Source: Streptomonospora litoralis
Lineage (GTDB): Bacteria; Actinomycetota; Actinomycetes; Streptosporangiales; Streptosporangiaceae
Reading direction: 5' to 3'
DNA: 64,000 nt
Assembly: GCF_004323735.1 (NCBI RefSeq)
Contig: NZ_CP036455.1
Location: forward strand, 3,715,101 to 3,779,100
The notes beneath the pieces were generated by a model, which made no database searches, was not told the origin of the DNA, and worked only from the letters and a program-made list of their open reading frames with translations. The stretch's first letter is position 1. Each line of letters begins with the position of its first letter. Of this stretch, positions 41,007-58,966 are shown one piece after another. The position numbers and the translations under genes were made by a program.

Positions 41007-43493
41007 CTACCCGGTGTCGGCCTCGGACATCCGGGCGTGGGCGGCGAACCGTGTCTGCAGGTCGGGAAGTACGGGGTAGACGGCGAACTCGTCGAGGTCC
41101 ATGACGCGGGTCCAGCTCTCGGGCAGCCGGTGGCGCCACTGCGCGGCCAGCAGCAGCGCCTCGACGCGGCGGACCTCGCTCCAGTCGTCGGGCACGGGCT
41201 CGCCGGCGCGGAGGCTCTCCTCGCGCTCCCAGGTCAGCAGCGCCTCGCCGAACGAGTCGAGCAGCTTCTGCATGCCCTCGTCGCCCACGCAGGAGACTCC
41301 GGCGCCGGGGTCGAGCGAGGCCGCGCGCTCGGCCGGGTCGACGAGGTGCAGGGCGGGCGCGATGTGCACACTGCCGAAGCCCAGGGCCTTGCCGAGGCCG
41401 ACCTTGTGCGCGTACAGGGGTTCGGCCGGGTCCCCGCCGCCGGCGGGATTGCCCAGGTGCAGTGCCCGCAGCAGCGCACCCACTTCGGCGTCGGTGAGGT
41501 TGGTGAAGGTGATCCGGCCGTGGAACGCCAGCCCGGGGTTCACGGGTACGACGTCACGGGTGGTGGGCCCCTCGGCGACGCGGTCGGGGTGCAGTTCGGC
41601 GTAGCGGCGGGCCGACGCCGGCAGCGGGTCGTGGCGGTGCAGGTAGACCTTGTAGCCGCCGAGGCGGACGTCGCCCTCGTGCGACCAGGTCACCAGCTCG
41701 GGTGCCTGGCCCCAGGTGGACTCGGTGACCGGCTGGAGCAGGTAGTTGGCGAAGCAGCTGCGCTGCGGCGAGAGCAGCTCGACCCGCAGCGGGTGCTCCG
41801 GCCAGGCCGCCGCGGCCCTCTCGCACAGCGCCGAGCCGACCGAGACGCGTCCCCGCGCGGCCCCTCCGGCGCTCTCGCCGGGCGGCAGCAGGTCGACGTC
41901 GCCGAACAGCGCCCGGGGCACGTCGGGCGTGCGGCCGGTACCCCGGGCCCGGGCGCGCTCGCCGGTGTGGACCTCGTCGGGGACGGCGCGGCTGACGGGG
42001 TCGAACTCGCCGACGGCCACCCGGTAGCCGCCGGAGCGTCCGAAGGAGGCGACCCGGCCTTGGGACACCTGGTACCAGACCGGTTCTCCGCCTTCGCGGG
42101 CCACGGCGCCCGGACGCGGGCGCCCGGCGCCGCCGCGGCCGCCGGCGGAACCGACAGCCTCGGCGGCCGCCGGAGCCGGTGCACCGGGCCGGTCGTCGGG
42201 AAAGTTGCGGGCCTGGAACCGGGTGATCTGGTCAGCCGATTCCACGAGATGGACGAGGTGGCCGGGCACGGGCAAGCGGCGCCGCGGATCGGTGTCGGTC
42301 GGGAAGAGGTAGGCGTTCTTGCGTTCGCCCGCGACACCGGTCAGCACCAGCACACACGTATAGGCCGAGAACGCGACGTCGTCGATGCGCCCCAGGGCCC
42401 GGTCGTAGTCGTTGCGCCTGCCCCGCGCGGCCGCGCGGGAACGCTCGCCGGAGGCCCGCCGCATCGCCTGCTCGGCGCCCGCACGCTTGTTGGTCCAGCG
42501 TTCGCGCAGCCGGTCGCGGGCGGCCTCGCGGTGGCCGAAGGAGGGCTCCTCCTCCGCGGGCAGCACCGCCATGGCCCAGAACCCGGTCTCACCGACGGTG
42601 CGGCCCTGTACCTGCGGGCACAGCGCCGTGACTTCGAGGTACTGGAACTCCGGGTGGAACTCCGCGGGGATGTAGCCGCCCCGGCCGTCTGCGCCGCCGG
42701 CCTCGTGCGGAGGCAGCTCGAACTCCGGGAGGCCGGGAAAGCGCCGCAGGTCCTCGCGCAGTTCGGCGAGGCGGACCTGCAGCGGCCGTTCGACCGGCAA
42801 CGGGTGGATCTCCCAGGAGCGGGTTCGCGTGTCGCGCCGCAGAAAACCCGCCTGAACGGGTGTTCCCGGAGGGTTGGAGGGAGCGCCGTCGCGGCGGCGG
42901 TACTGCTTGTGCAGATCGCGCATGACATGGCGTGCACGCCGGTCGCTGTGGGCGGCGGCGGGCGCGCGGAAGAACAGCTGGGGGGTGTTCACGGGTCCGG
43001 TCTCGCCGCCGGTCAGCACCCGCACGGTGTTGCGCAAGAGGCCGCGCAGCGAGGCGCCGGGCAGTGCGGGGCGGCCGTCGATCGTCAGCGAGTGCTCGGG
43101 GCCGTCGTGGCGGGTGGCGCCGACGAATGCGGGAGTCAGGGTGCGTACCGTGATGTCGATCCAGCCGGTGTTGGTACCCGGGATGCGCTGGTCGTGTCCT
43201 GCCAGCAGGCGGTGCTGGGGTGTGCCGTCGCGCAGCACCGACTCCTGCAGGCGTTCGGCGGGCATGGGGCGCTCGGGCAGCGGCACCAGTCCGTAGGGGG
43301 CGAGTGCCTGGTGGTCGCGCAGCGGGTCGGGGGGTGCGCCGGGCGGGCCCGAAGCGCCGCCGCGCTCGTCGCGGCGCCTGGCGCGACCGCCGGGGGGCAG
43401 CGGTGCGGGCCGGCGCGCGGCGACGGAGGCGCGGCGGCGCGGCATGGCGGCCGGTGTGGGCCGGGGGATTCCGGACGGAGGCTGGTCGCTCAC
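41007..43493 (-). CDS. Large RAMP-superfamily protein (TIGR03986-like), type III CRISPR effector
   Basis: 828 residues from the GTG at 43493, which overlaps the upstream stop (GTGA). The first ~65 residues are Pro/Arg-rich and probably disordered. Near 112-160 it has WIDITVRTLTPAFVG followed by LPGASLRGLLRNTVRVL, the classic RAMP substrate-entry motif. Near 695 there is a glycine-rich loop, GLGKALGFGSVHI, also a RAMP hallmark. Size and motifs fit the TIGR03986 CRISPR-associated RAMP family found with Csx10 and Csx19. It probably forms part of the crRNA-binding backbone. It is the last gene of the island. The internal region (about 230-600) has extra insertions rich in Gly and Arg. Confidence 0.8.
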   Translation of the reverse strand: MSDQPPSGIPRPTPAAMPRRRASVAARRPAPLPPGGRARRRDERGGASGPPGAPPDPLRDHQALAPYGLVPLPERPMPAERLQESVLRDGTPQHRLLAGHDQRIPGTNTGWIDITVRTLTPAFVGATRHDGPEHSLTIDGRPALPGASLRGLLRNTVRVLTGGETGPVNTPQLFFRAPAAAHSDRRARHVMRDLHKQYRRRDGAPSNPPGTPVQAGFLRRDTRTRSWEIHPLPVERPLQVRLAELREDLRRFPGLPEFELPPHEAGGADGRGGYIPAEFHPEFQYLEVTALCPQVQGRTVGETGFWAMAVLPAEEEPSFGHREAARDRLRERWTNKRAGAEQAMRRASGERSRAAARGRRNDYDRALGRIDDVAFSAYTCVLVLTGVAGERKNAYLFPTDTDPRRRLPVPGHLVHLVESADQITRFQARNFPDDRPGAPAPAAAEAVGSAGGRGGAGRPRPGAVAREGGEPVWYQVSQGRVASFGRSGGYRVAVGEFDPVSRAVPDEVHTGERARARGTGRTPDVPRALFGDVDLLPPGESAGGAARGRVSVGSALCERAAAAWPEHPLRVELLSPQRSCFANYLLQPVTESTWGQAPELVTWSHEGDVRLGGYKVYLHRHDPLPASARRYAELHPDRVAEGPTTRDVVPVNPGLAFHGRITFTNLTDAEVGALLRALHLGNPAGGGDPAEPLYAHKVGLGKALGFGSVHIAPALHLVDPAERAASLDPGAGVSCVGDEGMQKLLDSFGEALLTWEREESLRAGEPVPDDWSEVRRVEALLLAAQWRHRLPESWTRVMDLDEFAVYPVLPDLQTRFAAHARMSEADTG

Positions 43494-44335
43494 GGTGCCC
43501 TCCAGTTCTCCGCATCGTCGACGGCGTCGAGTCCGACCGGCGGCGTCGGCTTGGAGCCCGACCGGTAACCGGTCAAGCGGTGGCAGGCCACCCCGACCGC
43601 TCCGGTTTCGGAATCCTCCGCCCAGTACTCTCGGACAGCGAGCCAGCACCCCACCGGAGCGGGCACTCCGCCTGCCGCGGCGGTCGCCTCGCCGTCGGGA
43701 TCGATGCCGAAGTCCTGCCAGCTCACGGGGTGGCAGGCGGTCGTGCCGGAGAGTTCGCGGCCGATGCTGAAGGGGATGTCCCCGCCGAGGTCGCGACTGG
43801 AGCGCGGGCCCGCGTGCCAGCCGCTCAGCAGGAACGAGCGGTCGCGCGGCCGCAGCCACGGCGGCAGGGAGCCGATGTCGGCGCTGTCGCGGGTCGCCCA
43901 CGCGCCCTCGCCGCCTTCGCCGATGTGGATCTGGGCCGACGGCGAGAACACCACGGCGCTGAGCAGCCGCCAACCGTCGGAGCCGGCGGGGTCCGGCGGC
44001 GGCGCCGAGAGACGGGCCGTCTGCGGGTCGGTGCAGGAGAGCCGCCACGTATCGCGCGGGCAGGCACCGGTGATGCGGCCGTCGCCGAGTTCGGCCAGCA
44101 GCCATTGCGGCTCCCCGGGAGCCTGCGCGTCCAGGTCGGTGCTGCGCCTGCCTTCGCCGAACAGCTCGGCGAGGACGGAGGCCGCCGTCTCGGGAGCGAG
44201 CGGGGAGGTGACGGCCCCGCACGGGTCGGGCGGCTCCCAGGCGGGCTCCTGCCCGGCGGTGGTCGGCGTGGTCACGGGGTGTCCTCCAGAAGGGCTTTCG
44301 CCGGTGCGCGGAGGCGGCGTGCCGGGCGGCGGCAT
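43490..44335 (-). CDS. csx19: Csx19-like type III CRISPR protein
   Basis: 281 residues; the ATG at 44335 overlaps the upstream stop (TGATG), and its own stop overlaps the next GTG start. The N-terminal 40 residues are Pro/Thr-rich. The middle has AQIHIGEGGEGAWATRDS followed by RDRSFLLSGWHAG, a layout like the short beta-rich Csx19/TIGR03984 proteins. The assignment leans on position between RAMP genes in a Csx10-containing cluster; sequence similarity is only suggestive. Csx19 is a III-D component of poorly known role. Confidence 0.5.
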   Translation of the reverse strand: MPPPGTPPPRTGESPSGGHPVTTPTTAGQEPAWEPPDPCGAVTSPLAPETAASVLAELFGEGRRSTDLDAQAPGEPQWLLAELGDGRITGACPRDTWRLSCTDPQTARLSAPPPDPAGSDGWRLLSAVVFSPSAQIHIGEGGEGAWATRDSADIGSLPPWLRPRDRSFLLSGWHAGPRSSRDLGGDIPFSIGRELSGTTACHPVSWQDFGIDPDGEATAAAGGVPAPVGCWLAVREYWAEDSETGAVGVACHRLTGYRSGSKPTPPVGLDAVDDAENWRAP

Positions 44336-46269
44336 CACGTCCCCGCCTCGGGCGCCAGTGCCTCGTGCAGGGCCGCAAGCCAGGTCTCGGCGGCCCGGCG
44401 GTCGCCGCTCGCCGGGTCGTCGACGGCGGCGATCAGGTCCACCGGGGTGCCGACGCCTGCGGGGCCGGTGCGGGTGAGGACGGCCGAGGTGGCGGTGACC
44501 CGGCCGTGGCCGGAACCGGATCCGCCGCCGACGGCGTCCATCGGGACCGTGTGCAACTCGCGGACGATGAGCGCCAGCAGGCCGCGCACCGCGTCGTCGG
44601 CGTCGGGGATGTCCAGGACGACCTCGGCGTGGCCGCCGGCGTGCACGTCGTCGGTCAGCAGGCTCGCGTCCACGGCGTCGCCGAACAGCGCGTCGATCGT
44701 GACCCGCGTGGTGCGCTGCGGGGTGCCGCCGGTGAGTTCGGCCGTCCGGCGCAACCGGATGGAGGACGCCTCCGACGCGCCGTGCGTCGTGCCGTCGCCG
44801 CCCCACCAGCGGGCGTGCAGCCGCCGTGCGGGGCTGTCGGCCGGCCAGTCCTCGACCGCGGACCCGGACTCGCCGGAGATGTCGCGCACGAGTCGCCGGC
44901 TCATCCGCTTGAAAAGGGCGAAGAGCGCGGTGTCGCCCAGGGTCGGGCGCCACTGCACCGCGCCGTCGCCCGCCACCGCCGGGCGGTGCAGATGGGCGCG
45001 GTCGACTTCGCCCAAGGCGTCCAGGCGCGGGGCCTCCCCCACGAGGAGCAGGCCGGGCTGAAGCGGGTGCGCACCGGAGGGCGCGGGGTCCAGCACCGAT
45101 TCGGTCGGGCGTTCGGCGAGCCGCAGGATGATCGTCAGCTCGTCGCGGCGCCGGTGGTCGGTGGCGTGCTCGGCCAGCGCGCGGTCGTAGTCGTCGCCGA
45201 TTCCCGCGGCAAGTGCGGGCTCGGCTTCGAGGTGCTCGTCGATCAGCGGCGCCAGTCCCGCTTCGGCGGGGGGCGCCGCCTCGGCGGAGCCGCACCGCGC
45301 GGCCGCGGCCCGGTGGGCGCGGTCGCGGCGCTGCTGCCAGGTCAGCGCGTACCAGTCGGCCCAGCCCCGCGCATCCGTCAGATCGTGCCGGCGGGTGTGC
45401 CAGCCCTCGCAGCGCACCGCTCCGTAGCCGCGCGCGGTGCGGGCCCCGATGGAGACCCCCGGGTCGGCGCCGGTTCCGGCGATCCCCTCGGCCGCGAGAG
45501 CGGCGAGGGCGAGCAGTCGGCCCTCGTGCTCGGGCTCGTCGACCTGCAGCCGCAGAGTGAGGGTGAAGACCGTGCCGGCGGGCAGGGTCTCCATCCGCCA
45601 CAGCGCTCCGGGGGCGGCCGCGCCGCTTCCGGGGTCGACGCGGTTGCCCGCACGCACGGCGATCCCGGCCTCGGGCGGCAGTTCGGCGAAGGCGTCGTCG
45701 ATGTCGAGAGCGCTGTGCCGGGAGGCGCCGGTGCCGGCCTCGGCACTGCGAGTGGCGGCCTCGCCGAACAGCTCGGCGACGGGGCCCGCACCTCCGGGGC
45801 CGAGGCGTTCGGCCAGATGGTGGCGCAGTAGACCCGCCTGGGTGGTGGCGCGCAGACGCGGGTTCCCGGTGCGCGGGTCGCGGTCGAGCGGCGCGATGTC
45901 GCCCACGGCACGAGCGGAGTCGTCCGCGGAGCCGATGTGGGTGTCGCTGTGCAGCCGCACGCGGGCGGTGAGCTCCCACAGGACGGCGGGCCCACCGGTG
46001 CCGCCTGCGGCGAAGTCGAGCAGGTCGCCGTCGGCTTCGGTGCCGGTGTCGGTCTCGGTGTCGGTGTCAGCCTCGGCGTCGCTTGCGCCCGGCTCCCCGA
46101 TGCGGGCGCCGAGCGGCGCCCAGGGGCTCGGCCTCGGGGACGCCTCCGCCTCAGCGGCCGGCGCGCCGCTCTCGGGAACGCGGCCGGGTGAGCGTGTCCC
46201 CGCGTAGCCGCCTGCGCCGCGCGGCTCCCGTCCCGCGGACCGCGCCGCGCGTCCGCCCGGCGCACTCAC
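44335..46269 (-). CDS. Double-RAMP (Cas7-Cas7) fusion, type III CRISPR effector
   Basis: 644 residues from the GTG at 46269, which has GGAAGGAGGG about 8 bases upstream; an in-frame ATG at 46518 would add 83 Arg-rich residues and is less likely. After ~90 disordered residues ending in an acidic run (EADTDTETDTGTEAD), the first RAMP domain spans about 96-300: RVRLHSDTHIGSADDSA, TQAGLLRHHLAERL and the Gly loop SIGARTARGYGAV. The second spans about 377-600, with DALFGDAVDASLLTDD and the Gly loop GGGSGSGHGRVT. Fused Cas7-like domains are a feature of type III-D and III-E effectors. The catalytic Asp for target RNA cleavage cannot be fixed by eye; D118-D119 or the DD at 539-541 are candidates. Confidence 0.8.
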   Translation of the reverse strand: MSAPGGRAARSAGREPRGAGGYAGTRSPGRVPESGAPAAEAEASPRPSPWAPLGARIGEPGASDAEADTDTETDTGTEADGDLLDFAAGGTGGPAVLWELTARVRLHSDTHIGSADDSARAVGDIAPLDRDPRTGNPRLRATTQAGLLRHHLAERLGPGGAGPVAELFGEAATRSAEAGTGASRHSALDIDDAFAELPPEAGIAVRAGNRVDPGSGAAAPGALWRMETLPAGTVFTLTLRLQVDEPEHEGRLLALAALAAEGIAGTGADPGVSIGARTARGYGAVRCEGWHTRRHDLTDARGWADWYALTWQQRRDRAHRAAAARCGSAEAAPPAEAGLAPLIDEHLEAEPALAAGIGDDYDRALAEHATDHRRRDELTIILRLAERPTESVLDPAPSGAHPLQPGLLLVGEAPRLDALGEVDRAHLHRPAVAGDGAVQWRPTLGDTALFALFKRMSRRLVRDISGESGSAVEDWPADSPARRLHARWWGGDGTTHGASEASSIRLRRTAELTGGTPQRTTRVTIDALFGDAVDASLLTDDVHAGGHAEVVLDIPDADDAVRGLLALIVRELHTVPMDAVGGGSGSGHGRVTATSAVLTRTGPAGVGTPVDLIAAVDDPASGDRRAAETWLAALHEALAPEAGT

Positions 46270-46652
46270 GTCGTCCCTCCTTCCCGCAGACGGCCCGGGC
46301 GGCGTCCACCCCGGCGAGGGAGCCGCTCCGCCGCCGGTTGCGGTGCCCGGACAGGTGCCCGTTCCCGCGACGCGGCGGCGGCAACGGGGCATGGACGCCC
46401 TCGGGCCTGAGCGCCGCGGCCTCCGCGGTGATCCGACCCTGGCGGCCCTGAGAAGTTCCTTCTCGGCCCGCAGCCGATCCGGGCGGCTCCCATCACCGAC
46501 TCGGGCGGCCTGCGCCACTCGGCGGCACCCGCCGCGCTGCCCGCCCGCGGCGCGGCGAAGCCGGGCGCGGCCGGAACATCCGCCACTGCAGGAGCCCCGG
46601 CCGAAACGGGCGCTGCTCCGGCTTCCGGTCGGCGGGAGGCGAGCGGTGTCAT
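46266..46652 (-). CDS. Small unknown protein in the type III operon
   Basis: 128 residues. Its ATG overlaps the csx10 stop (ATGA) and its stop overlaps the GTG of the double-RAMP gene (GTGA), exactly the coupling used elsewhere in this operon. The product is rich in Ala, Pro, Arg and Gly and shows no domain. This is the place where a small subunit (Cas11) might be expected, but the sequence does not look helical. Codon third-position GC is lower than in its neighbours, so it may be a decayed gene or non-coding spacer. Confidence 0.4.
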   Translation of the reverse strand: MTPLASRRPEAGAAPVSAGAPAVADVPAAPGFAAPRAGSAAGAAEWRRPPESVMGAARIGCGPRRNFSGPPGSDHRGGRGAQARGRPCPVAAAASRERAPVRAPQPAAERLPRRGGRRPGRLREGGTT

Positions 46653-48532
46653 TCGGTGCCCTCCCGGTGTGCGGTGTCGCGGACCGTCCACGCGGCGGCC
46701 GCCAGCCAGGTACTGATCAGCTGCAGCGCCAGGCGGGCCACGACCTCGGGGCGTTCGGCCCAGGACGCGGCCGCCGCGGTGGCCCCTTCGCCGCGCCGCC
46801 AGGCCAGATCGACCGGGGCGAGTGCCTGCGTGAGGGTGGCGCAGTCCGGCGCCGCGTGCTCCCACCAGGAGCGCGGGGAGCGCGCTGCGCCTTCGATCCA
46901 CCGCGGCAGCGGCAGCTCGTCGGTCCCGTGCGGCACGGCGGTGGCCTCCAGGTCCGCACGGGCGGCGCTGTGCAGCGGCGCGTGAGGGGCGGAGCGCTCC
47001 GCGTCGCCGGTGACCACCCCCGCCAGCCGGGACAGGGTGTCGGCGGCCTCGGGCGACGGCGCCGCGACGACCTCGCGCAGCCTCCCCAGCAGCGGTGCGG
47101 GCGGCAGCCGGGCCGAGCGGCGGGCGAGGTCGCGGGCGCGGGCCCGCACCGGTTCGGCCGCTGCGCGACTGAGCAGGACGTCCTGCAGGCTCGCGACCGG
47201 CGATTCACTCGGAGCGGCGGCTGCCTGGGCGCTGACCCAGTCCGGATCGACCCAGACCGGGGAGCCGTCGGCGAGGGTCACAGGCCGGATCCGGAGTTCC
47301 GTCCTCTCCGGATCCGGCGCCTGGGGGACGGCCGCGAAGCGGCGTGCCGCCTCGGGGCGCGTGGCGGCGGGGGCGTGAGCCACCGGCGCCCGCTCGGCGG
47401 GCGGACCGTGCGGCGCGGGGACCGGAAGCAGCGCCGCGGCGCCGTGGCCGTCGGCGGCGCGGCGGCCCAGCGGGTGCGCCTCCAGCTCGCGCACCTGCGC
47501 CAAGGCGATGTCGCGCAGGGCCCGCAGCCGCACCACGGAACCGGGCGCTGCGGCCCATCGCTCGGCCATGGGCCCGCGGTACATGCGGTGGTAGGCACCA
47601 GCCGCCTCCTGGTGCAGGTGGGCGCCCGCCACCTCGACGGCGCCGGGGCCGAGGAGCCGCTCGGCGGCGCGGGCGGCGGCCCGGGGCAGGGCCGCGGGAC
47701 ACGGGCGCCCGAGATCGTCGTCGATGTGCGCGGGGGCGAGCAGCAGCAGATCGCGATGCTCGCCGCGGTGCCAGGTGCCTCGCCCCGCGTCGACGCGGTC
47801 GGCGAGCAGAGCCGCGGCGGAGCCGGCGACCGGTGTGGCGCGGATGCCGCCGCCGTGCGCGCGGCTGCCGCCCGATCCGAGGGAGAGCAGGCCGTCGGCC
47901 GCGGCCAGGACCTCCCAGACCTCCCGGGCGAGGTCCTGCGCTTGTGCTGCGGATGCGGCGGTGAGCTGCCAGCGCGCCTCGAATACCTGGCCCGGTTCGA
48001 GGCTGGTGGTGAAGTAGGGCACGCCGTGCCGCCCGGCGTCACGGCGGGCCACGCCGAGGTACTGCTCGGTGCGGGTCAGCGGTGCGGCGCGCAGCGCGAG
48101 GTCGGGTGTGACATGGCCGACGAGGGTGCGGTAGGCGCTGCCGGGCGCGGCGGGTGCGGCCAGCAGGTCGGCCATGTGCTCGTCGGGGCCGCCCTCGGTT
48201 GTGCGTACGTGCCAGCAGCGCGGCGCCGGCACGGTCGCGGTGCTGCCGGAGTCGTCCTCGATCAGCGGGAACGCCGGCGCGAACCGGATGGCGCGGCCGC
48301 GCGCGATCCACGGCTCGACGAGGTCGTCGCGCCCGGCGTGGCGCAGGGCGGCGGCGAGCATGCCGCGTTGGGCGCGACCGGGGACGGCGTGGGCGGTGGT
48401 GATGCGCAGCGGGTCGTAGTCCGAGCGCACGACCAGCGACTCGGTGAGCACGTAGCGCAGCCCGAGGTAGGCGTGCACGACACCGCCCGCGCCACCGGTG
48501 CGGCCGTCGGGGTGGGGGTCGGCGATCGTCAC
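46649..48532 (-). CDS. csx10: Csx10-like RAMP protein, type III-D CRISPR effector
   Basis: 627 residues from the GTG at 48532, overlapping the upstream stop (GTGA). The N-terminal half has the Csx10 pattern: YVLTESLVVRSDYDPLRITT, then HAVPGRAQRGMLAAALRHAG (a RAMP entry motif), and a Gly-rich loop LSLGSGGSRAHGGGIRAT at about 216-233. Csx10 replaces Cas5/Csm4 as the crRNA 5'-handle subunit in III-D complexes. The C-terminal ~250 residues are helical and Ala/Arg-rich with no assigned fold; they could serve as a fused partner domain. Confidence 0.8.
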   Translation of the reverse strand: MTIADPHPDGRTGGAGGVVHAYLGLRYVLTESLVVRSDYDPLRITTAHAVPGRAQRGMLAAALRHAGRDDLVEPWIARGRAIRFAPAFPLIEDDSGSTATVPAPRCWHVRTTEGGPDEHMADLLAAPAAPGSAYRTLVGHVTPDLALRAAPLTRTEQYLGVARRDAGRHGVPYFTTSLEPGQVFEARWQLTAASAAQAQDLAREVWEVLAAADGLLSLGSGGSRAHGGGIRATPVAGSAAALLADRVDAGRGTWHRGEHRDLLLLAPAHIDDDLGRPCPAALPRAAARAAERLLGPGAVEVAGAHLHQEAAGAYHRMYRGPMAERWAAAPGSVVRLRALRDIALAQVRELEAHPLGRRAADGHGAAALLPVPAPHGPPAERAPVAHAPAATRPEAARRFAAVPQAPDPERTELRIRPVTLADGSPVWVDPDWVSAQAAAAPSESPVASLQDVLLSRAAAEPVRARARDLARRSARLPPAPLLGRLREVVAAPSPEAADTLSRLAGVVTGDAERSAPHAPLHSAARADLEATAVPHGTDELPLPRWIEGAARSPRSWWEHAAPDCATLTQALAPVDLAWRRGEGATAAAASWAERPEVVARLALQLISTWLAAAAWTVRDTAHREGTE

Positions 48533-49278
48533 ACCCCTGTTTCTCGGACAGTCCTCTCGGGGTCGATGCCGGCCCAGGTCAGCGTGCGGGTGTGGGCGTC
48601 GGCGGAGTCGGTGCCGGGGTCGTCGGCCAGCCGCGCGTCGAGCCTGCCGCGCCCGCGGCCGGACTTCAGCCCCGCCTGGGTGAAGGCGAGCGCGGCCCGG
48701 GCCAGGCAGCGCACCTCGTCGGCTGCGGGGCGGCGGGTCCAGCGCAGCGGGGCCGTCAGCCGCAGCCCGGGGTCGACGACGCGGACGGTACGCAGCCGGG
48801 CGTCGGTCGGCGCACCGTCGCCGTCGATGGCCACGCCGCTTTCGACGGAGGTGAACGCGTCGGTGACGGCGCGCACGAGGGTGTTCACAGCTCCGCCGGA
48901 CTCGGCGGAGGCGCGCTGCTCCAGCGCCCAGGCCACGGCGGCGCGCACCGGTTCGGGTGGGGTGGCGTGGCCGACGCGGAGGATGCGGCCGGGGCCGTGG
49001 CGGCGGGAGGTTCCGAAGAGGGCGTGGGCCGCGGGCAGAAGCGCGCGATCGGCGCGGACCGCGGTGACCGCGGCGTCGCGCAGCCGGGCGGCGATGCGCT
49101 GGCGGGGTAGGTAGGGCAGCCCGTGGGAGTCGGTGACCACGTCGGAGTCGGCCGCGGTACCGGCGGCACTGGCGCCGGCGAAGATGGCGGGCGCCACCAG
49201 GTCGACGAGCAGGTATGCGGGCGTATCGGCGTCGGCGGTGCCGTCGTCCGCGCGCGTGGGCGTCTCGGGCCCGGTCAC
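48529..49278 (-). CDS. Cas7/Csm3-like RAMP protein
   Basis: 249 residues from the GTG at 49278 with AGGAGG about 8 bases upstream. RAMP features are DVVTDSHGLPYLPRQRIAARL near residue 45-65 and a Gly-rich loop GLKSGRGRGRLDARL near 200. It is the shortest RAMP of the set and likely a single backbone subunit. It is the first gene after the 560-base gap that splits the island. Confidence 0.75.
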   Translation of the reverse strand: MTGPETPTRADDGTADADTPAYLLVDLVAPAIFAGASAAGTAADSDVVTDSHGLPYLPRQRIAARLRDAAVTAVRADRALLPAAHALFGTSRRHGPGRILRVGHATPPEPVRAAVAWALEQRASAESGGAVNTLVRAVTDAFTSVESGVAIDGDGAPTDARLRTVRVVDPGLRLTAPLRWTRRPAADEVRCLARAALAFTQAGLKSGRGRGRLDARLADDPGTDSADAHTRTLTWAGIDPERTVRETGV

Positions 49279-49599
49279 GGGCGCCCTCCTGCGGAGACGA
49301 CACGAAGCGGCAGCGGCGCCTCGCGCGCAGTAGAGAGCGAGTGCGCCCGGTGGTGGACGCCCGAGCGGCGTTCCTGAGTCATGGAGCTACCTGCCGTTTC
49401 AAGTGGGGTTGCGATGTCGGCGGGACGAGCAGCGCGGGCGCGCCCGGGCGGTGGGGGCCGCACCCGCGGAGTCGGTGGCGGTGTGGCCGCGGGCGGGGCG
49501 GGCGGGACAGGCGTCGCGGGTCCGCGGGGCGGCCTGGGGACCTGCAGAGTGCGGGGCGTCTCGCAGAGAAGCGGCAGCGAGGGCGGTGTGCGGTCGGGC

Positions 49600-49672
49600 C
49601 CGCGCGCAACGGCCCCGGTGCCCGCCGGTGGCACGCCCAGCGGAGGCGGCGAGGGCGCCGGAGGGCCGCAAG
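49600..49672 (+). repeat. Partial copy of the dispersed GC-rich hairpin repeat
   Basis: GGTGCCCGCCGGTGGCAC followed by GGCGGCGAGGGCGCCGGAGG resembles the hairpin and flanks of the repeats at 9742-10319 and 34610. It is preceded by CGGGCCCGCG as in the other copies. Confidence 0.5.
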
Positions 49673-49721
49673 CGCCCCGCGCGCCCGTTATTCCGCAGGG
49701 TCGACGAAACGATCATGCCGC

Positions 49722-49786
49722 TATGACGGAATCCAGCGGCGTGGGTTGGGAATTTCACCGCAACCACTTCCCCGGATTCCGTCATA
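49722..49786. repeat. 13-bp inverted repeat upstream of the second half of the island
   Basis: TATGACGGAATCC (49722-49734) and GGATTCCGTCATA (49774-49786) are perfect inverted repeats 39 bases apart. The loop can form a further GGTTG/CAACC stem. The arm shares ATTCCGTC with the core of the interspersed repeats at 54299-54612. Confidence 0.65.
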
Positions 49787-49839
49787 ACGGACTCATCGGG
49801 CGCAGTCCGCACGATCACTCCGCCTCCTTCTCCGCACGG

Positions 49840-51582
49840 TCACTCCGGCCCTTCGGGCGGGGCGAGGTGTGTCAGGGATACGTCGAGGTGCAGGTCGAGC
49901 AGGGCGAGGGCGTCGAGGAGGCGGTCGCGGGCGAAGGGCTCGGGGAGTTCCACCGGCAGGCCGAGGTCGCTGCGGCGTTCCAGTTCGGCCGCGGGGTCGC
50001 GGCCGTCCGCCAGCAGCGGCGCCAGGCGCGAGAGCAGCCAGGACCGCTGCTCGCTCGGCCCCGCGGCGCGCAGACTGCCGGGGGCGGCGGGGTCCAGGTA
50101 ATCGCGGAGGAACGTCTGGAACCCGGTTCCGGTCATGGGGAGGGCCGTGCGGCCGGGGCCGCCGTCGGCCGCTGCGCGCCCGGCCTCGCGCAGGCGGGCG
50201 ACGACGCGGGCCGGGTCGTCGAAGTCCTGCGACCAGGCCACCACGTGGTCGTCGAGCCGGTCGGCGGACCGCTTGCGGTGGGCCTTGGCCTCCTCGCACA
50301 GCGCAGCGCAGATGTCGTAGCCCACCGAGAGCGGCGCGCCGACGGGCTGGACCGCGATGCCGACTCCGGCCGACGGCACGCCGGTGGTGCGCCCGCTGTC
50401 CAGCCGCCTGGTCCACGGCGGTGTGCCCGCGCGGCGGGCCATGGCGGTGCGCGGGTCGTCGGCGGGCAGTGCCGCGGGGTCGGCGTCGAGCCAGTCCAGG
50501 GCGAACCGGGTGGCGCTCCAGGCCAGCCGGGCGTCGCAGATGACGGTGAGGTCGTCGCCGGCCACGACCACCGGCCGGACCGGTACGTAGACGGTGCCGC
50601 GCGCGCTGCGCGGCCGCAGCCGCCCGCCGGCTCCCCGCCCTTCGATGGCGGGCTCGCCCAAGCCGCCGGGCGTGCCGATGGCGGCGGCGACCGACCGGAT
50701 GAGGGCACGGGCCAGTCCCTCGGTGAGCCGGGCGATGTCGGCGGAGACGGTGCGCATGCTCGCCGCGACGTCGCCGCCGGACTCCTCGACCGCGCGGTGG
50801 TGGCGTTTGAGCAGGTCCCCAAGGCCGTTGAAGTCCAGGTGGACCACAGCCAGGCGGCTGACGTCGCCGATCTCGCGGCCGAGGTGGTCGACGTCGGTGG
50901 GCAGTTCCAGGCGCTGGGCTCCGGCGGGCGGGGCGATGCCGTGCAGCCAGGCGCGGCTGTTGGCGTCGTGCCACTGGCGGGCGCGCATGCGGGCGGTGAC
51001 GATGTCGCGGGCGGCGCGCTCGCGGACGGGACCGCGGTCGCGGGTGTGGTCGAGGAGTTCGGCGGGGCGTCCGGTGATGTCGCAGGTGGCGGTGACGCCG
51101 AGGCCCTGGACGGGCAGGTGGCCGGGCGCCGGGCGGGCGCGGGCGCTCTGCAGCGCGGCGGGCAGCAGGCGCAGCGCCTCGGCCTGGGTTTCCGGCCGCC
51201 CCGCTCGGCCGTAGGGCAGGTGCGCGGTGACGGGGGTGAGGCGGTCGGAGATGTCGCGCAGCCGGCGGGTGTAGCGGCCGGTGAAGGCGCGGGCGTGCGC
51301 GGTGGCGCGGTGCGGATCGGTGAAGGCGATGTAGAGGGCGCCCCCGGCGTCGCGCAGCACCGCGCGATGCTGTCGGGGAACCTCGGCCAGCAGCGGGGCG
51401 ACGTGCGGGCCGGCGGTGTCGGTGAGGTCGGCGACGAGGGTGGCGCGGCCGATGGCGTCGAGCAGCCGCCGCCCTTCGTAGATGAACCGCTGAATGCCGA
51501 CGAGGTCGATACCGACGAGCACGCCGCCCGAAGGTGCGCCCGTGTCGGCGCCGGGCGCGGCGGCGGCTTCGGCGGCGCTCAT
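49840..51582 (-). CDS. cas10: Cas10-family protein without HD domain
   Basis: 580 residues from the ATG at 51582 (AGGAGG upstream, ATGA overlap with the upstream stop). It starts directly with the first palm (GVLVGIDLVGIQRFIYEGRR, residues 20-39; DAGGALYIAF, 78-87). No HD nuclease domain precedes it. A zinc-site remnant ATCDITGRPAE lies near 165. The second palm has VVHLDFNGLGDLL (247-259) and VVVAGDDLTVICD (338-350), where the usual GGDD is AGDD. Both acidic residues are kept, so cyclic oligoadenylate synthesis remains possible, while DNA cleavage is not expected. The neighbouring CARF nuclease supports a signalling role. Confidence 0.85.
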   Translation of the reverse strand: MSAAEAAAAPGADTGAPSGGVLVGIDLVGIQRFIYEGRRLLDAIGRATLVADLTDTAGPHVAPLLAEVPRQHRAVLRDAGGALYIAFTDPHRATAHARAFTGRYTRRLRDISDRLTPVTAHLPYGRAGRPETQAEALRLLPAALQSARARPAPGHLPVQGLGVTATCDITGRPAELLDHTRDRGPVRERAARDIVTARMRARQWHDANSRAWLHGIAPPAGAQRLELPTDVDHLGREIGDVSRLAVVHLDFNGLGDLLKRHHRAVEESGGDVAASMRTVSADIARLTEGLARALIRSVAAAIGTPGGLGEPAIEGRGAGGRLRPRSARGTVYVPVRPVVVAGDDLTVICDARLAWSATRFALDWLDADPAALPADDPRTAMARRAGTPPWTRRLDSGRTTGVPSAGVGIAVQPVGAPLSVGYDICAALCEEAKAHRKRSADRLDDHVVAWSQDFDDPARVVARLREAGRAAADGGPGRTALPMTGTGFQTFLRDYLDPAAPGSLRAAGPSEQRSWLLSRLAPLLADGRDPAAELERRSDLGLPVELPEPFARDRLLDALALLDLHLDVSLTHLAPPEGPE

Positions 51583-53930
51583 CGGGGTGCCTCCTGACGA
51601 GGTCGGAGCCGGAGTGCGGACAGGTGGGCGTGCAGCGCGGCGCGGAACGCGGGGGTTCCCGGCTCTGCTGATACCACTCTCGGACGCCGGGTGTCCTCGT
51701 GGCCGGTGATCAGCTCGGCGGGGGGCGCGGCGCCGTCCCCCGCCGACTCCCCGTCGGCGCGCCACCAGGAGAACCAGTCGATCACCTCCAGCGCGCGCCC
51801 GGGGTCGCCGTCGCCGGGCCGGTGCAGGGCGAGTGTCAGCCCGGCGGTGCCGCAGCGCACGTTGAGCAGTGCGGCGGCGGCGAAGACGTCGTGCGCCCAG
51901 CCGCCGGCACCGGTCTCCTGCTCCACGTGCACGTCGGTGGAGGTGAAGTGGCGCAGCCGCGTGCTGCGGGGGGCGCTCAGGCCCAGGGCGCGATCGGCGA
52001 CGGTGAGGACGAGGGTGGGGCGCTGCGGCGCGGAGTACTGCGGCAGCGTCGGCGCCCCGGCGATCGCGGTCTCATCCACCCAGGCGGCGACCTCGCGGGG
52101 AGCGGCGAGGTCGCGTACGGCCTCGGCCGCGGCGTCGATGAGGGGCGCGTCGACCTGGTGCGCGGCCACTTCGCCGGCGACGGTCTCGGCGAGAGTGCCG
52201 CTCAGGAAGCGGTAGCCGCGCAGCAGGTGGTGCCATTCCACCGCGGCGGGCGGATGGTGGCCCACGGGCCCGTGGGTGCGGCAGGAGACCCGCCGGGTCA
52301 GCGGCGAGACGTAGGTGAGGCAGCCGCCGCGCTCGTGAGCGGCCAGCGCCAGACCGGTGCTCATGGCCTTGGTGCCGGTGGTGATGTCGGCGACGACGGG
52401 GGTGCCGGCCGTGCGGTACTGGTCGATCTTGGCGCGGGCGCGGCCGGCGACGTCGGCCACGTCGGCCGCGTCCACGGCGGCCTCGGCGAACTTGACCCGG
52501 TCGGGGTAGCCGTCGCGGCGCAGCCGGGAGGCGAGGCGGCGCCGGTTGAGGCGGCGGAATTCCGCGGGCTCCTCGGCGGCGAGCAGGGTGCGGCGCACCC
52601 CCGAGTCGAGCGCGGCCAACTCCTTCTCGCTCTGCCGGGTGAACAGCATGACGGCGCGCCGGGGCAGGCAGGCGCGGGCGGCGGCGAGCACCGGAAGCCG
52701 GTTGCCGCCCAATCCCAGGAGCAGCAGCGGGGCGGCGCCGGCAGCGGGGTGCGGCTCTGCACGGGGAGCGGCGGGGCATGCGGCGGGCGCGGCGCCGCGG
52801 ACCGGCGCGGGGTCGGCGGTCGGCCCCGCCGCCGCGGAGGCGCCTCCCGGCGCAGCGGTGCCGTCGGCTCCAACGGGCCCGTCGGTGTCGCCGCGGGGTT
52901 GCGGCGAGGGCGGGCGGGGCGGCGGAGCGGCGGGGAAGAAGCTCTCGATCATCCGGGCGCTGCCGAAGTCGCGGGTGAGCTCGCCGAGACTGCGCACGTG
53001 CAGCGGCGCGCCGCTGAGCTCGGGGTCGTAGGCGGCCAGCTGCTCGATGGAGCAGTCGCCCTTCGCGCCTTCGTGCACGAAGAGCACCCGGGCGGCGCCG
53101 CCGAAGGCGCGCTGGGCCTTGGTGAGGGTCCAGCCCGCCGCGTCCGGGATGTGTGCGGGGTCGCGCTTGACCTCGACGCAGAGCACGCGGTGCCGGTAGC
53201 GCACGACGAGGTCGAAGTCGCCGATGGACTCGCGCGGGCTGCGCGGGTCGGGCATGACGCGGTTGCCCACCACCTCGGCGCCGCCGACGCGGGAGAGCCG
53301 GCGCCGGAAGAGGTCCAGCACCCGCGCCTCGGCCGTGTCGCCGCTGGTGAGCGAGGCGGGTTCGCCGCGCAGCCACGCCTCCTGGGCTCCGGTGCGGTCG
53401 CCCGGGCGCAGCTCGATGCCGTGCAGCCAGGCCAGCGCGTCCACGTTGAGCGCGCTGCTGTCGATACCGGGCTCGTAGCGGGAACCGTCGGTGAACCGCA
53501 GTGTCTCGGAGGTGGCGTCGAGGTAGCTGCGCCAGCGGTGGCGATCGGGGAACCGCTCGGTGTGCAGCAGCACGGCGTGCGCGCTCATCACCTTGCTGCC
53601 GCCGGTGTAGCACAGCCGCCAGTCACCGGGCAGCTCGTCGGCGAGGGCGCCGAAGCGCTGGGCGACGGCGTGGAAGTCGAAGACGTCGGCGCCTGCGTCG
53701 AAGCGCCGCGCGGTCTCGATCGCCGGGCACAGCCGCTGGGCGGCGGCCGCGATCCGCGCGGCGCGCCGGGCGGTGTCGCTGCTGTGCACCAGGACCAGGC
53801 GCCGCGGTGCGAAGGTCAGGGCGGCCAGCAGCGCCGGGGTGGGGCTGGTTCCCGCCAGCACCACCAGTGCCGCCGGGCCGCCGCCGGCGGGATCACGGGC
53901 ATCGCCGGGGTGGTCCGCTCTCCGTCCCAT
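51579..53930 (-). CDS. Can1-like tandem CARF/PD-(D/E)XK ancillary nuclease
   Basis: 783 residues. Domains: CARF1 (about 21-150; VVLAGTSPTPALLAAL and LCYTGGSKVMSAHAV); PD-(D/E)XK nuclease (about 195-330; IGDFDLVV with D240 and VLCVEVKRD with E253 and K255); a Pro/Ala/Gly linker (about 333-398); CARF2 (about 401-545; LLLLGLGGNRLPVLAAA and DITTGTKAMSTGLAL); and a last region (about 620-783) with GAGGWAHDVFAAAALL but no ExK, which looks like a dead nuclease domain. This is the two-CARF single-chain layout of Can1, with an active Card1/Can2-like first half. It should be switched on by cyclic oligoadenylate, most likely cA4, and nick or degrade nucleic acid. It overlaps cas10 by 4 bases. Confidence 0.85.
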   Translation of the reverse strand: MGRRADHPGDARDPAGGGPAALVVLAGTSPTPALLAALTFAPRRLVLVHSSDTARRAARIAAAAQRLCPAIETARRFDAGADVFDFHAVAQRFGALADELPGDWRLCYTGGSKVMSAHAVLLHTERFPDRHRWRSYLDATSETLRFTDGSRYEPGIDSSALNVDALAWLHGIELRPGDRTGAQEAWLRGEPASLTSGDTAEARVLDLFRRRLSRVGGAEVVGNRVMPDPRSPRESIGDFDLVVRYRHRVLCVEVKRDPAHIPDAAGWTLTKAQRAFGGAARVLFVHEGAKGDCSIEQLAAYDPELSGAPLHVRSLGELTRDFGSARMIESFFPAAPPPRPPSPQPRGDTDGPVGADGTAAPGGASAAAGPTADPAPVRGAAPAACPAAPRAEPHPAAGAAPLLLLGLGGNRLPVLAAARACLPRRAVMLFTRQSEKELAALDSGVRRTLLAAEEPAEFRRLNRRRLASRLRRDGYPDRVKFAEAAVDAADVADVAGRARAKIDQYRTAGTPVVADITTGTKAMSTGLALAAHERGGCLTYVSPLTRRVSCRTHGPVGHHPPAAVEWHHLLRGYRFLSGTLAETVAGEVAAHQVDAPLIDAAAEAVRDLAAPREVAAWVDETAIAGAPTLPQYSAPQRPTLVLTVADRALGLSAPRSTRLRHFTSTDVHVEQETGAGGWAHDVFAAAALLNVRCGTAGLTLALHRPGDGDPGRALEVIDWFSWWRADGESAGDGAAPPAELITGHEDTRRPRVVSAEPGTPAFRAALHAHLSALRLRPRQEAPR

Positions 53931-54298
53931 GGGCCCATTTCACACTCTCGTGCGCCGCTCCGCGACGCTGCGGCACCGCCATCCGTGATTCCCGCAAAAA
54001 ACCAGAAACCACACTTTTCACCCCTGTGTCCGAGAGAGGTGCTGTGTCGGAGGTGATCGCCCATACGAACCATGACCCAGCCCCTCGAAGCACTCGAATC
54101 CCCACGCTAGCCCGCACCGGCCCCGGTACGGGCGAACAGGACCGCAGGCGCCTCCGCCGCCGCGGCGGCCGAAAGGAGGAGCGGTGAGACGACCACTACG
54201 GGCTTGGAACCGCACGCGGACCGCACCCGGTTCTTCCCGCCCCGACCCGGTGCCCCCGGGCCGGGGAACCGGCGGCCGCACCGGCTTCCAGCCCCGAA

Positions 54299-54612
54299 CC
54301 CGGCAGACGGGATAGCTACCGCCACCGCAGGTCTCTCGCGTCGATCAGGGAAGCCCCTATCCCGGCAGACGGGACAGCGACCGCGCAGAGCACGGCCCTG
54401 GCTGCTTCTTCGTCGTCCGAGCCCGGTTGACGGGATAACAACGCCAGTTGTTGACGGACGCTCCCCCAGGGCCGACTCCTCCCGGTAGACGGAATGGGAC
54501 CGGCACCAAGGCCCGGTCCGGGAATCGCCCCGGCCCATGCCCCGGCCCTGACAACCAACACCTGGCTCGCCTGCGAATATCCCGCCAGCCCGATCCCGGC
54601 AGACGGAATGGC
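54299..54612 (-). CRISPR. Degenerate interspersed repeats, possible CRISPR remnant
   Basis: Copies of a short core start at 54299, 54361, 54422, 54481 and 54595, with a very poor one at 54541. Spacings are 62, 61, 59, 60 and 54. On the minus strand the core is RTYCCGTCTGCCGGG, with a CCCG-N5-CGGG hairpin. Conservation beyond 15-16 bases is weak (a trailing nTCGGG-like tract). A ~60-base period, a hairpin core and a position between cas6 and the effector genes fit a decayed array; the poor outer conservation argues against an active one. Confidence 0.45.
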
Positions 54613-54739
54613 TGGCCCGGGCGCCGGGCACTCGCCCGCGCGCCGCACCGGCACAGGCGGTTCCGCAACCGAAAGGGCGCACCCGCCCCGAGACCGGAAC
54701 CGCCTGGTGACCGGCGCACCCCCGGCCCCCTCGCGCCTC

Positions 54740-55072
54740 TCAGCCGTTGCGGCGGCCCAGCGCCTTGCAGCCCACGATCGTGCCGTCGGAGGAGCGGACC
54801 AGGTCGGTGGGCACGAGCAGGTCGCTGCGCTCGGGATGGGCCAGCGCGACAGCGGAGGAGACGATGTACCAGACGCCCAGAGCGGGAGCGGGCAGCAGCG
54901 CCCGCCCGTAGTCCTCGGAGAACACCGGGATACCCCCGATGCGGCCGATCTCGCAGCGGTCGACGGCCACGCGGACCGGTTTCGCCGCCGCGGGGCAGCG
55001 GACGACGACGCGGTCATCGGAATCGAAGATCGTCACCTCGTGCGGTGTCAGGTTGACCAGCGGAACACGCAT
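54740..55072 (-). CDS. NLTPH-type small protein of unknown function
   Basis: 110 residues. It begins MRVPLVNLTPHEVTIFDSDD and has GIPVFSEDYG, YIVSSAVALAHPERSDLLVP and DGTIVGCKALG. This pattern (NLTPH start, IVSS plus RxDLxxP, and a final GxIxGCxxL) belongs to a widespread family of small proteins seen in bacteria, plasmids and phages; I know of no assigned function. It is encoded between cas6 and the interspersed repeats, on the same strand, 82 bases from the cas6 stop. Whether it belongs to the defence system is not known. Confidence 0.7.
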   Translation of the reverse strand: MRVPLVNLTPHEVTIFDSDDRVVVRCPAAAKPVRVAVDRCEIGRIGGIPVFSEDYGRALLPAPALGVWYIVSSAVALAHPERSDLLVPTDLVRSSDGTIVGCKALGRRNG

Positions 55073-55154
55073 TCTTCCCTCTCATGCCCCGAGCCGGCCG
55101 GGTGCGCCGGGCAGACCCTGCGTGCTGCGCGGCCGCCGCCCCGCGGCGCCCGGG

Positions 55155-56078
55155 TCAGTCGAACAGCAACCCGTCAAATTCCTGTTCCTGGTATTCCGCG
55201 TGCACCGGACGCGGAGACCGGGGCCGCCGGCGGTCCCGGCCTGCGGGCCGCCGCCGGCCGACTGCCGCGTCGTCGCCGGTCGTAAGTGTGTCGACGCGCA
55301 GCGCACCGAACCCCTGCGCGGTGTACTTGCCCACTCCGGTCAGCTCGACCAGCTCCAGCAGCGCACCGAAGTCGGCCGACAGGCGGCCGTCGCTGCCGCT
55401 GGGAAGCGCCAGGCGCAGCCCGCCCTCCCAGCCGAGCACCGTGCGCCCGGCCGGGCCGGAGTGCTCGGCGGCCCGGATCGGTGCGGAGTCGTCGGGCATG
55501 CGCCGCAGCCGCGCGGTGACCTCGTCGATGCGGCGCAGCCACGGCTCGGCGACCTCGCGCGGGGCGAACCGCGCCACCGCCCCGATCGCCCCGCTGCCGC
55601 TGAGCCGGCCTGAGGCGGTGCGGTGGACGACGCCGAACAGCAGCCGCGGCCCCGGCCACGCCTGGAAGCTGTCCTCGCCGTCGTAGTTGCGAGCCAGCGA
55701 GACGACCGGGCTGAGGGTGTGCAGCGCCGCCGAGCGGGCGATTCGGCGGGGCTCGGTGAGGACGGCGGTGTAGTCGCGGGCGTGCACGTCGGTGACCGAC
55801 AGCGGTTCCAGCAGGTGGTCGCCCACCCGCTGCACGCGGCCGACGAGGTCGGCCGGCTCGGTCTCGGGCGGTTCGTCGTCCAACCAGGTCAGCGACCACA
55901 CCCACAGGCGGTCGGCGAGCGGCTGCGGCCAGCCGTTCATGGCCCACTTCTTAGCCGCGCCGTGCTCGGAGTCGGGCTGCGGCCACCAGGTGTTCAACAG
56001 TCCGTGGCAGTCGACGGCGCGCACGGGCCGGGCGGCGTCGGCGTGGTCGCGCAGCACCAGCGTCCAGCGTCGCGGCAT
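55155..56078 (-). CDS. cas6: Cas6-like CRISPR RNA endoribonuclease
   Basis: 307 residues from the ATG at 56078 (GGGGGAG upstream). The C-terminal Gly-rich loop characteristic of Cas6 RAMPs is ELTGVGKYTAQGFGALRV near 245-262, and HTLSPVVSLARN is a typical central segment. Cas6 cuts the CRISPR precursor RNA within the repeat. Candidates for the catalytic His cannot be fixed by eye. The last 45 residues form an Arg-rich tail. Its presence implies the effector is, or was, supplied with processed crRNA, although no intact array is seen here. Confidence 0.75.
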   Translation of the reverse strand: MPRRWTLVLRDHADAARPVRAVDCHGLLNTWWPQPDSEHGAAKKWAMNGWPQPLADRLWVWSLTWLDDEPPETEPADLVGRVQRVGDHLLEPLSVTDVHARDYTAVLTEPRRIARSAALHTLSPVVSLARNYDGEDSFQAWPGPRLLFGVVHRTASGRLSGSGAIGAVARFAPREVAEPWLRRIDEVTARLRRMPDDSAPIRAAEHSGPAGRTVLGWEGGLRLALPSGSDGRLSADFGALLELVELTGVGKYTAQGFGALRVDTLTTGDDAAVGRRRPAGRDRRRPRSPRPVHAEYQEQEFDGLLFD

Positions 56079-58004: not shown

Positions 58005-58034
58005 GGGGCGGGCGGCCGTGGTCGCCGATCCGTC

Positions 58035-58666: not shown

Positions 58667-58679
58667 CACCCTCACCTCC

Positions 58680-58944: not shown

Positions 58945-58966
58945 CTCGGGCGGGCGGTGGGGGCGG

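What the first reader, a model, noticed from the sequence alone, without database searches (positions are those of the whole stretch)
41007..56078. A signal-type type III-D-like CRISPR island without adaptation genes
Seen: cas6-like, CARF nuclease, cas10, three RAMP genes besides csx10, a csx19-like gene, most joined by 4-base overlaps on one strand. No cas1/cas2, no HD domain, no intact array. Known: Csx10 and Csx19 mark subtype III-D. Inference: the system detects RNA and acts mainly through a cyclic oligoadenylate second messenger. The gene set and order, with a fused double RAMP and a very large RAMP, may be an undescribed actinobacterial variant.
Basis: partly seen in the sequence, partly recalled or inferred. 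Interest (0 to 1): 0.85.

Follow-up and report, generated by a model that had tools for sequence, protein, structure and literature searches.

The report
Type III CRISPR with frozen array
This actinobacterium carries an RNA-sensing CRISPR system with an alarm molecule and its off-switch but no nearby genes for learning new targets, and beside it a small repeat-spacer array whose spacers have hardly changed between species, which suggests guides that are fixed rather than acquired.

Summary
The gene island is real: cas6, a Crn4 ring nuclease, a CARF-PD(D/E)xK-CARF effector, cas10 (no HD found, cyclase motif AGDD kept), a single cas7, a cas5-like gene, a double cas7, csx25 and a TIGR03986 RAMP, all on the minus strand. 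Cas10, the double Cas7 and the single Cas7 have the Synechocystis III-Dv complex as nearest solved relatives: a III-D-like system with III-Dv's Cas7-Cas5-Cas11 fusion split. It is not unknown: PADLOC-DB holds close models named 'IIIh'; the published III-H is another system, whose tests this one fails.

New: the island does hold an array. Five degenerate 18-nt hairpin repeats (54299-54612) lie about 60 nt apart between crn4 and the CARF gene. The same array, spacers included, is in 6 of 6 genomes of the genus and in two further genera. Invariant columns: repeats 72-94%, spacers 51-71% (the first only 26% if its insertion is counted), flanks 20-25%, fourfold sites 26-30%. Folding energy is no better than shuffles. 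No convincing target was found; the best lead is 17 nt complementary to trpS mRNA. Best reading: cOA-signalling III-D-like system with a frozen, selected array of fixed guides; guide function, strand and targets are untested.

The parts
55155..56084 (-). cas6 (about 309 aa)
   Evidence: PADLOC Cas6 E 2.7e-134 and Cas6_IIIh E 1.5e-112; orthologue in 7 of 7 further array-bearing loci
54740..55072 (-). crn4 ring nuclease (110 aa; PADLOC Unk_01)
   Evidence: AlphaFold2 model pLDDT 92.4; Foldseek best match 9r7b Crn4, E 5.1e-10, 36% identity; T9, H11, R93 invariant in 17 of 17
54595..54612 (.). array repeat R1
   Evidence: strand of transcription unresolved
54499..54594 (.). spacer S1 (96 nt here, with an insertion of about 55 nt that 4 of 8 species carry)
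54481..54498 (.). array repeat R2
54440..54480 (.). spacer S2 (41 nt; 29 of 41 columns invariant in 8 species)
54422..54439 (.). array repeat R3
54379..54421 (.). spacer S3 (43 nt; 22 of 43 invariant)
54361..54378 (.). array repeat R4
54317..54360 (.). spacer S4 (44 nt; 25 of 44 invariant)
54299..54316 (.). array repeat R5
51579..53930 (-). CARF-PD(D/E)xK-CARF effector, Can1-like (783 aa)
   Evidence: PADLOC CARF4--CARF_PDDEXK_CARF E 6.9e-213, Can1 E 4.7e-75; motifs kept; no solved relative found by sequence
49840..51582 (-). cas10 (about 580 aa), no HD found, AGDD
   Evidence: PADLOC Cas10h E 2e-156; nearest solved 8s9t_C, E 6.7e-10; AGDD in 20 of 20 rows
48529..49278 (-). single cas7 (249 aa), counterpart of the Cas7 part of III-Dv Cas7-Cas5-Cas11
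   Evidence: PADLOC Csm3 E 2.7e-60, Cas7_IIIh E 5.5e-41; 8s9t_A residues 26-210, E 1.5e-4
46649..48532 (-). cas5-like (627 aa), probably Cas5 plus Cas11 (inference)
   Evidence: PADLOC Cas5_IIIh E 3.1e-217; no solved relative by sequence
44335..46518 (-). double cas7 (Cas7-2x-like); true start uncertain, conserved part from about 46000
   Evidence: PADLOC Cas7_IIId E 4.9e-38; 8s9t_D Cas7-2x E 1.2e-10
43490..44335 (-). csx25 (csx19-like)
   Evidence: PADLOC Csx25 E 6.5e-73; Csx19 profile below cut-off
41007..43496 (-). TIGR03986 RAMP (Cas7-insertion-like); start uncertain
   Evidence: NCBIfam 256.8 bits over cut-off 161.35
56615..57967 (+). divergent conserved neighbour, PADLOC Unk_06, function unknown
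   Evidence: E 7e-167; present beside all 8 array-bearing loci and the full-length relatives without array; fold model poor

Best explanation
A III-D-like effector (Cas10; split Cas7 and Cas5; Cas7-2x; Csx25; Cas7-insertion) with a complete cyclic-oligoadenylate circuit. On pairing of its guide with a matching RNA, Cas10 would make cyclic oligoadenylate, which would bind the two CARF domains of the PD-(D/E)xK nuclease and switch it on; Crn4 would destroy the messenger and reset the cell; the Cas7 aspartates would cut the target RNA. The guides come, at least in part, from a short array between crn4 and the CARF gene, cut by the neighbouring Cas6 at the hairpin repeats. The repeats are degenerate and the spacers are conserved between species and genera, so the array is frozen and under selection: fixed guides instead of adaptive memory. 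Shown here: gene content, motif conservation, fold of Crn4, regular spacing, conservation of spacers above flanks and fourfold sites. Inferred: messenger chemistry, processing by Cas6, loading of these guides, any target.
For: Gene content. Nearest solved relatives of Cas10, double Cas7, single Cas7 all in 8s9t. AGDD and the palm D-x-N kept in 20 of 20 Cas10 rows (some rows are close relatives). Effector: CARF motif 1 seen in 16 of 18 rows, PD-(D/E)xK and CARF motif 2 in 17 of 18; the rest are fragments or begin later. Crn4 fold and T/H/R (residues from passages of PMC12830947). Array: repeat spacing 58-66 nt for R2-R5 in 8 of 8 species and 60-62 nt for R1-R2 in 4 of 8; found in 6 of 6 genomes of the genus and in G121 and G402, each with the operon; the S4-R5 pattern in 4 of 394 genomes of the class, all carriers, reversed control 0 in every listed row. 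Invariant columns: R 13-17 of 18; S2 29/41, S3 22/43, S4 25/44, S1 25/45 outside its insertion; flanks 26/128, 54/250, 30/118; fourfold sites 45/149 and 15/58. Eight folds of the R3-R5 part have z from -0.55 to 0.57, so the conservation is of sequence, not of an unusually stable whole-RNA fold. III-Dv of Synechocystis has spacers of 34-46 bp (passage); S2-S4 are 41-44 nt.
Against: The 8-nt stretch after the hairpin on the operon strand is not alike between repeats, unlike a usual crRNA tag; on the other strand a tag-like ATAGC is alike, but there the fourth hairpin pair breaks in 14 of 40 copies. The core was found by a fixed pattern, so its presence in all 40 copies is partly by construction. 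S1 with its insertion is no better conserved (25 of 96) than the flanks. RNAalifold finds 18 of 142 pairs with a change on both sides, chiefly in the outer stems, with an unfavourable covariation term, so some local structure is possible. No convincing target. The 11 full-length relatives in genus g3 have the operon without this array nearby, so the effector does not need it there. No expression data.
Confidence: 0.55

Rival explanations
1. The repeat region is a regulatory or scaffold RNA rather than a guide source: repeated hairpins that bind Cas6 (or another RNA-binding protein) and tie Cas6 level to expression of the CARF-cas10 operon downstream.
For: It lies in the 809-nt gap just upstream of the CARF gene on the operon strand. 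Hairpins pair better on the operon strand (pair 4: 25 Watson-Crick and 14 G-U of 40; on the other strand 14 of 40 broken). Outer stem of R1 shows paired changes (AU in 3, GC in 2 sequences).
Against: Whole-fold z-scores near zero in 8 of 8 folds. A 60-nt period with whole conserved intervals is more than hairpins alone need. No match to a known RNA family: one sub-threshold hit, 21.9 bits against 44.5.
Confidence: 0.3
2. A creTA- or scaRNA-like ectopic array: crRNA-like RNAs with degenerate repeats that steer the effector to a host transcript, as control or addiction rather than defence.
For: Repeat degeneration is described as common to ectopic repeats and as making them stable against recombination (abstract and passages of PMC9458426). 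S1 is complementary over 17 contiguous nt (19 of 21) to the coding strand of a tryptophan--tRNA ligase gene in G000 and G395; 4 of 6 genomes of the genus carry that 21-mer.
Against: S1 and trpS do not change together: in G395 S1 differs from its own trpS at three places. The reversed control pattern gave 10 matches of up to 3 mismatches in the same 6 genomes, against 16 outside the array. No conserved match of any spacer in the own locus. No toxin RNA was looked for. The papers seen describe it for other CRISPR types.
Confidence: 0.2
3. A decayed array, a relic without function.
For: Degenerate repeats; no adaptation genes beside it.
Against: Spacers keep 51-71% invariant columns over 8 species in 3 genera, against 20-25% in flanks and 26-30% at fourfold sites. 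A relic would not.
Confidence: 0.04

Closest known systems
Type III-Dv complex of Synechocystis PCC 6803 (PDB 8s9t; PMC11026444)
   Same: Same set of subunits: Cas10, Cas7-2x, Cas7/Cas5, csx19-type small subunit, large Cas7 with insertion; nearest solved relatives of three subunits
   Different: Cas7 and Cas5 are separate genes here; Csx25 stands where Csx19 stands; no adaptation genes or 56-spacer array beside it; the ancillary proteins are a CARF-PD(D/E)xK-CARF nuclease and Crn4, not Csm6 and Csx1
PADLOC-DB 'IIIh' models (Cas10h, Cas5_IIIh, Cas6_IIIh, Cas7_IIIh)
   Same: E 2e-156, 3e-217, 1.5e-112 for Cas10, Cas5, Cas6: clearly the same protein clade
   Different: Only profile names were seen; no paper describing this clade was found
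Subtype III-H of the 2025 classification (PMC12669027)
   Same: Name only; both lack adaptation genes
   Different: III-H has an inactivated palm, an active HD, no conserved Cas7 aspartates and no CARF genes (section 7); here the palm motif is kept, no HD was found, and a CARF nuclease and ring nuclease are present
Crn4 ring nucleases (PMC12830947)
   Same: Fold, T-x-H motif, arginine, association with type III-D
   Different: Here beside a Can1-like effector; the paper's passages name Csm6-2/CorA and Can2
CreTA and other ectopic degenerate repeats (PMC9458426)
   Same: Degenerate repeats, conserved spacer, beside cas genes
   Different: Type III-D-like effector, five repeats, no target promoter or toxin found

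Membership tests
CRISPR-Cas subtype III-D | csx10-type cas5 | tested here: inconclusive
   PADLOC Cas5_IIIh only; no NCBIfam or Pfam match at E up to 10 and 1; that a Csx10 model is in those libraries is recalled, not checked
CRISPR-Cas subtype III-D | TIGR03986-type RAMP | tested here: met
   256.8 bits, cut-off 161.35
CRISPR-Cas subtype III-D | csx19 or its counterpart | tested here: met
   Csx25, labelled CAS-III-D, E 6.5e-73; Csx19 itself below cut-off
III-Dv variant | Cas7-Cas5-Cas11 fused in one protein | tested here: not met
   Two genes, 48529-49278 and 46649-48532: hence 'III-Dv-like', not a member
Published subtype III-H | Inactivated Cas10 palm | tested here: not met
   AGDD and D-x-N in 20 of 20 rows
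Published subtype III-H | Active HD in Cas10; no CARF genes | tested here: not met
   No HD found; CARF nuclease present
Cyclic-oligoadenylate signalling | Cyclase motif, CARF effector, ring nuclease encoded together | tested here: met
Cyclic-oligoadenylate signalling | Messenger made and bound | not testable with these tools
   Needs biochemistry
CRISPR array | Repeats at regular spacing beside cas genes | tested here: met
   58-66 nt for R2-R5 in 8 of 8 species
CRISPR array (adaptive) | Spacers differ between strains and species | tested here: not met
   Spacers conserved over 8 species in 3 genera
CRISPR array | Near-identical repeats with a constant tag | tested here: not met
   18-nt core only; tag constant on neither strand beyond 5 nt
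CRISPR array | Transcribed and cut into guides | not testable with these tools
   No RNA data
CreTA-like module | Spacer partly matches a local promoter of a toxic RNA | tested here: inconclusive
   No conserved local match; toxin RNAs not searched for

The most novel reading that the evidence does not exclude
A hard-wired, innate type III sensor: a III-D-like complex that has given up adaptation and carries a frozen set of four guides kept by selection across genera, to detect one class of conserved transcript (of a widespread parasite or of the host itself, trpS being the one weak lead) and answer with a cyclic-oligoadenylate alarm.
Probability: 0.3. Interest if true: 0.85.

Novelty: new variant of a known kind. 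Interest (0 to 1): 0.6.

Why it matters
CRISPR arrays are normally the fastest-changing part of a locus. An array whose spacers are conserved between species and genera, next to a complete signalling type III system without adaptation genes, would be a case of CRISPR turned into a fixed recognition system. The conserved spacers make the question testable: they name four guides whose targets can be looked for. The protein side also joins Crn4 (described in 2025) to a Can1-like effector, and clears up a name clash between PADLOC 'IIIh' and published III-H.

Tried and rejected
Structured RNA as the whole answer: eight folds of 140-145 nt have z near zero; RNAalifold shows 18 of 142 pairs with paired changes but an unfavourable covariation term. 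I did not build a covariance model.

Known RNA family: one sub-threshold Rfam match.

Target searches. Genus patterns, up to 3 mismatches: S4 gave four single matches outside the array over 6 genomes; S2 one; S3 two, both in the own genome; S1 sixteen outside the array against 10 for the reversed control, among them the trpS site. Phages: no match at E up to 1; plasmids: one weak match, E 0.3. Viral contigs: the S4 16-mer in 27 stretches against 2 for the reversed pattern, the S2 18-mer in 5 against 0; the reversed patterns are poor controls (the first holds CTAG), and the flanks of the 27 and 5 matches fit the spacer no better than shuffled flanks (0 of 27, 0 of 5), so I do not count them as targets. 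Own locus: no match shared by most species; one 14-mer in S3 is shared by 2 of 8; no shuffle control was run there. Two short matches of the region next to R1, not of spacers, occur elsewhere in G395.

Coding repeats: spacing is not a multiple of three and frames break. A short plus-strand ORF with a conserved ribosome-site-like sequence ends in R5 in 6 of 8 species but its residues are hardly conserved.

Unknown neighbour 56615-57967: model pLDDT 57, not searched further. Cas5-like and Csx25 profiles found no solved relative.

Arrays beside the g3 relatives: a scan for exact 13-mers 45-130 nt apart found no array-like series, but would miss degenerate ones.
Full report
Setting. The window lies in a 5.8-Mb genome (C1:3715101-3779100).

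Genes. All on the minus strand: cas6 55155-56084, crn4 54740-55072, CARF-PD(D/E)xK-CARF 51579-53930, cas10 49840-51582, cas7 48529-49278, cas5-like 46649-48532, double cas7 44335-46518, csx25 43490-44335, TIGR03986 41007-43496. PADLOC names most of them Cas10h, Cas5_IIIh, Cas6_IIIh; TIGR03986 passes its NCBIfam cut-off; the single and double Cas7 match several Cas7 models. Profiles of aligned orthologues hit the Synechocystis III-Dv complex for Cas10 (E 6.7e-10), double Cas7 (1.2e-10) and single Cas7 (1.5e-4, to the Cas7 part of Cas7-Cas5-Cas11); the cas5-like and Csx25 profiles hit nothing solved. Passages of PMC11026444 give the III-Dv gene set: the same list, with Cas7 and Cas5-Cas11 fused there and split here. 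That the cas5-like protein holds a Cas11 part is inference.

Signalling. Cas10 keeps AGDD and D-x-N in 20 of 20 aligned rows, one of them only about 28% identical over its matched part. The effector keeps TGG(S/T)K in 16 of 18 rows and DFD...ExK and the second CARF motif in 17 of 18; the missing ones are fragments or start later, and a few rows come from the same genome. The 110-residue protein, called Unk_01 in PADLOC, models at pLDDT 92.4 and matches Crn4 (7 of 7 structures with E at most 0.001 are Crn4). Passages of PMC12830947 name T13, H15, R112 as key residues and call the family Unk01 earlier; T9, H11 and R93 are invariant here in 17 of 17; that R93 is the same arginine is inferred from spacing. 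Cas7-type aspartates are kept in most rows of the single and double Cas7 but not in TIGR03986; I did not align them to the solved sites.

Not published III-H. Section 7 of PMC12669027 (read in full) says III-H has an inactivated palm, active HD, no Cas7 aspartates and no CARF genes. This system has the opposite of what could be tested. Searches for a paper on the PADLOC clade found none (the library lacks most subscription papers).

The array. Five hairpin repeats, core CCCGG(C/T)NGACGG(G/A)A on the plus strand, stand at 54299-54612. R2-R5 are 58-66 nt apart in 8 of 8 species; R1-R2 is 60-62 nt in 4 and 104-119 nt in the other 4, which share an insertion. The region is found by BLAST in 6 of 6 genomes of the genus; a two-hairpin pattern over 297 genomes of the family gives 14 with a match, 8 of them this array (6 of the genus, G121, G402) and 6 single unrelated matches, with no control match in any listed row. 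G402 carries the whole operon. An S4-R5 pattern over 394 genomes of the class hits 4, all carriers. The single repeat with 3 mismatches allowed is not rare (38 matches in the own genome, control 21), so the evidence rests on the series and on conservation, not on one repeat.

Conservation. Over 8 species, invariant columns: R1-R5 14, 13, 17, 15, 17 of 18; S1 25 of 96 (25 of 45 outside its insertion), S2 29 of 41, S3 22 of 43, S4 25 of 44; left flank 26 of 128, right flank 54 of 250 and 30 of 118; fourfold sites of cas6 45 of 149 and of crn4 15 of 58. One flank (L029) was cut at an arbitrary place. Spacers are thus held by selection about as a functional RNA would be, but their folds are no better than shuffles on either strand.

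Strand. On the operon strand the fourth hairpin pair stands in 39 of 40 copies, on the other in 26 of 40. On the other strand the bases after the hairpin (ATAGC) are alike between repeats, as in a crRNA tag, and resemble the end of the repeat of the other arrays of the genome. The strand is left open.

Where the array is missing. Twelve genomes labelled g3 carry the system (11 complete, one on a short contig), with crn4 and the effector downstream of TIGR03986 instead, and no such array in the fetched stretches. Of 19 genomes with the system, 15 have a Cas1 match somewhere, so guides from other arrays are possible in most; 4 of the g3 genomes had none at that sensitivity. In the own genome a Cas1 lies between two arrays of 61-nt period at C1:15-34 kb; that these are type I-E is recalled from the repeat.

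Targets. None convincing. The best lead is S1, complementary over 17 contiguous nt to a gene that NCBIfam models name tryptophan--tRNA ligase (below their full-length cut-offs because only 144 residues were given); S1 and trpS do not change together, and matches of this quality are frequent in the control. Matches in viral contigs do not extend.

Judgement. The protein side is a III-D-like signalling system, nearest to III-Dv, already in PADLOC: about 0.9 sure. That the repeats are a frozen array giving guides: about 0.55.

Noticed in passing
56615-57967 (+): Divergent gene (PADLOC Unk_06, E 7e-167) with conserved N-terminal cysteines, beside the system in both arrangements; function unknown, model poor.
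   Followed up: partly
58035-58696 (-): VapBC-like toxin-antitoxin pair (PIN and VapB_antitoxin) between two 45-nt direct repeats, 57965-58009 and 58901-58945, 96% alike; the first begins at the stop codon of the Unk_06 gene.
   Followed up: no
G000:C1:15000-34000 (L028): Two ordinary CRISPR arrays with 61-nt period in the same genome, near the only Cas1 match.
   Followed up: partly
54170-54187 (+): A ribosome-site-like AAGGAGGAGCGGTG on the plus strand is conserved; the ORF after it ends inside R5 in 6 of 8 species.
   Followed up: partly
54021-54040: Motif CTCTCTCGGACA upstream of the CARF gene; in g3 relatives it stands as an inverted pair around the likely cas10 promoter and before crn4: perhaps an operator.
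   Followed up: no
49806-49854: A 25-nt unit twice in tandem, at the cas10 end of the 561-nt gap before cas7.
   Followed up: no
L032-L043, between cas6 and cas10: A small ORF on the opposite strand seems shared by the g3 relatives (read by eye).
   Followed up: no
L044 (G019), 9289-16881: A distant relative in another family, with cas10 (AGDD), cas7, double cas7, TIGR03986 and a reversed crn4.
   Followed up: no
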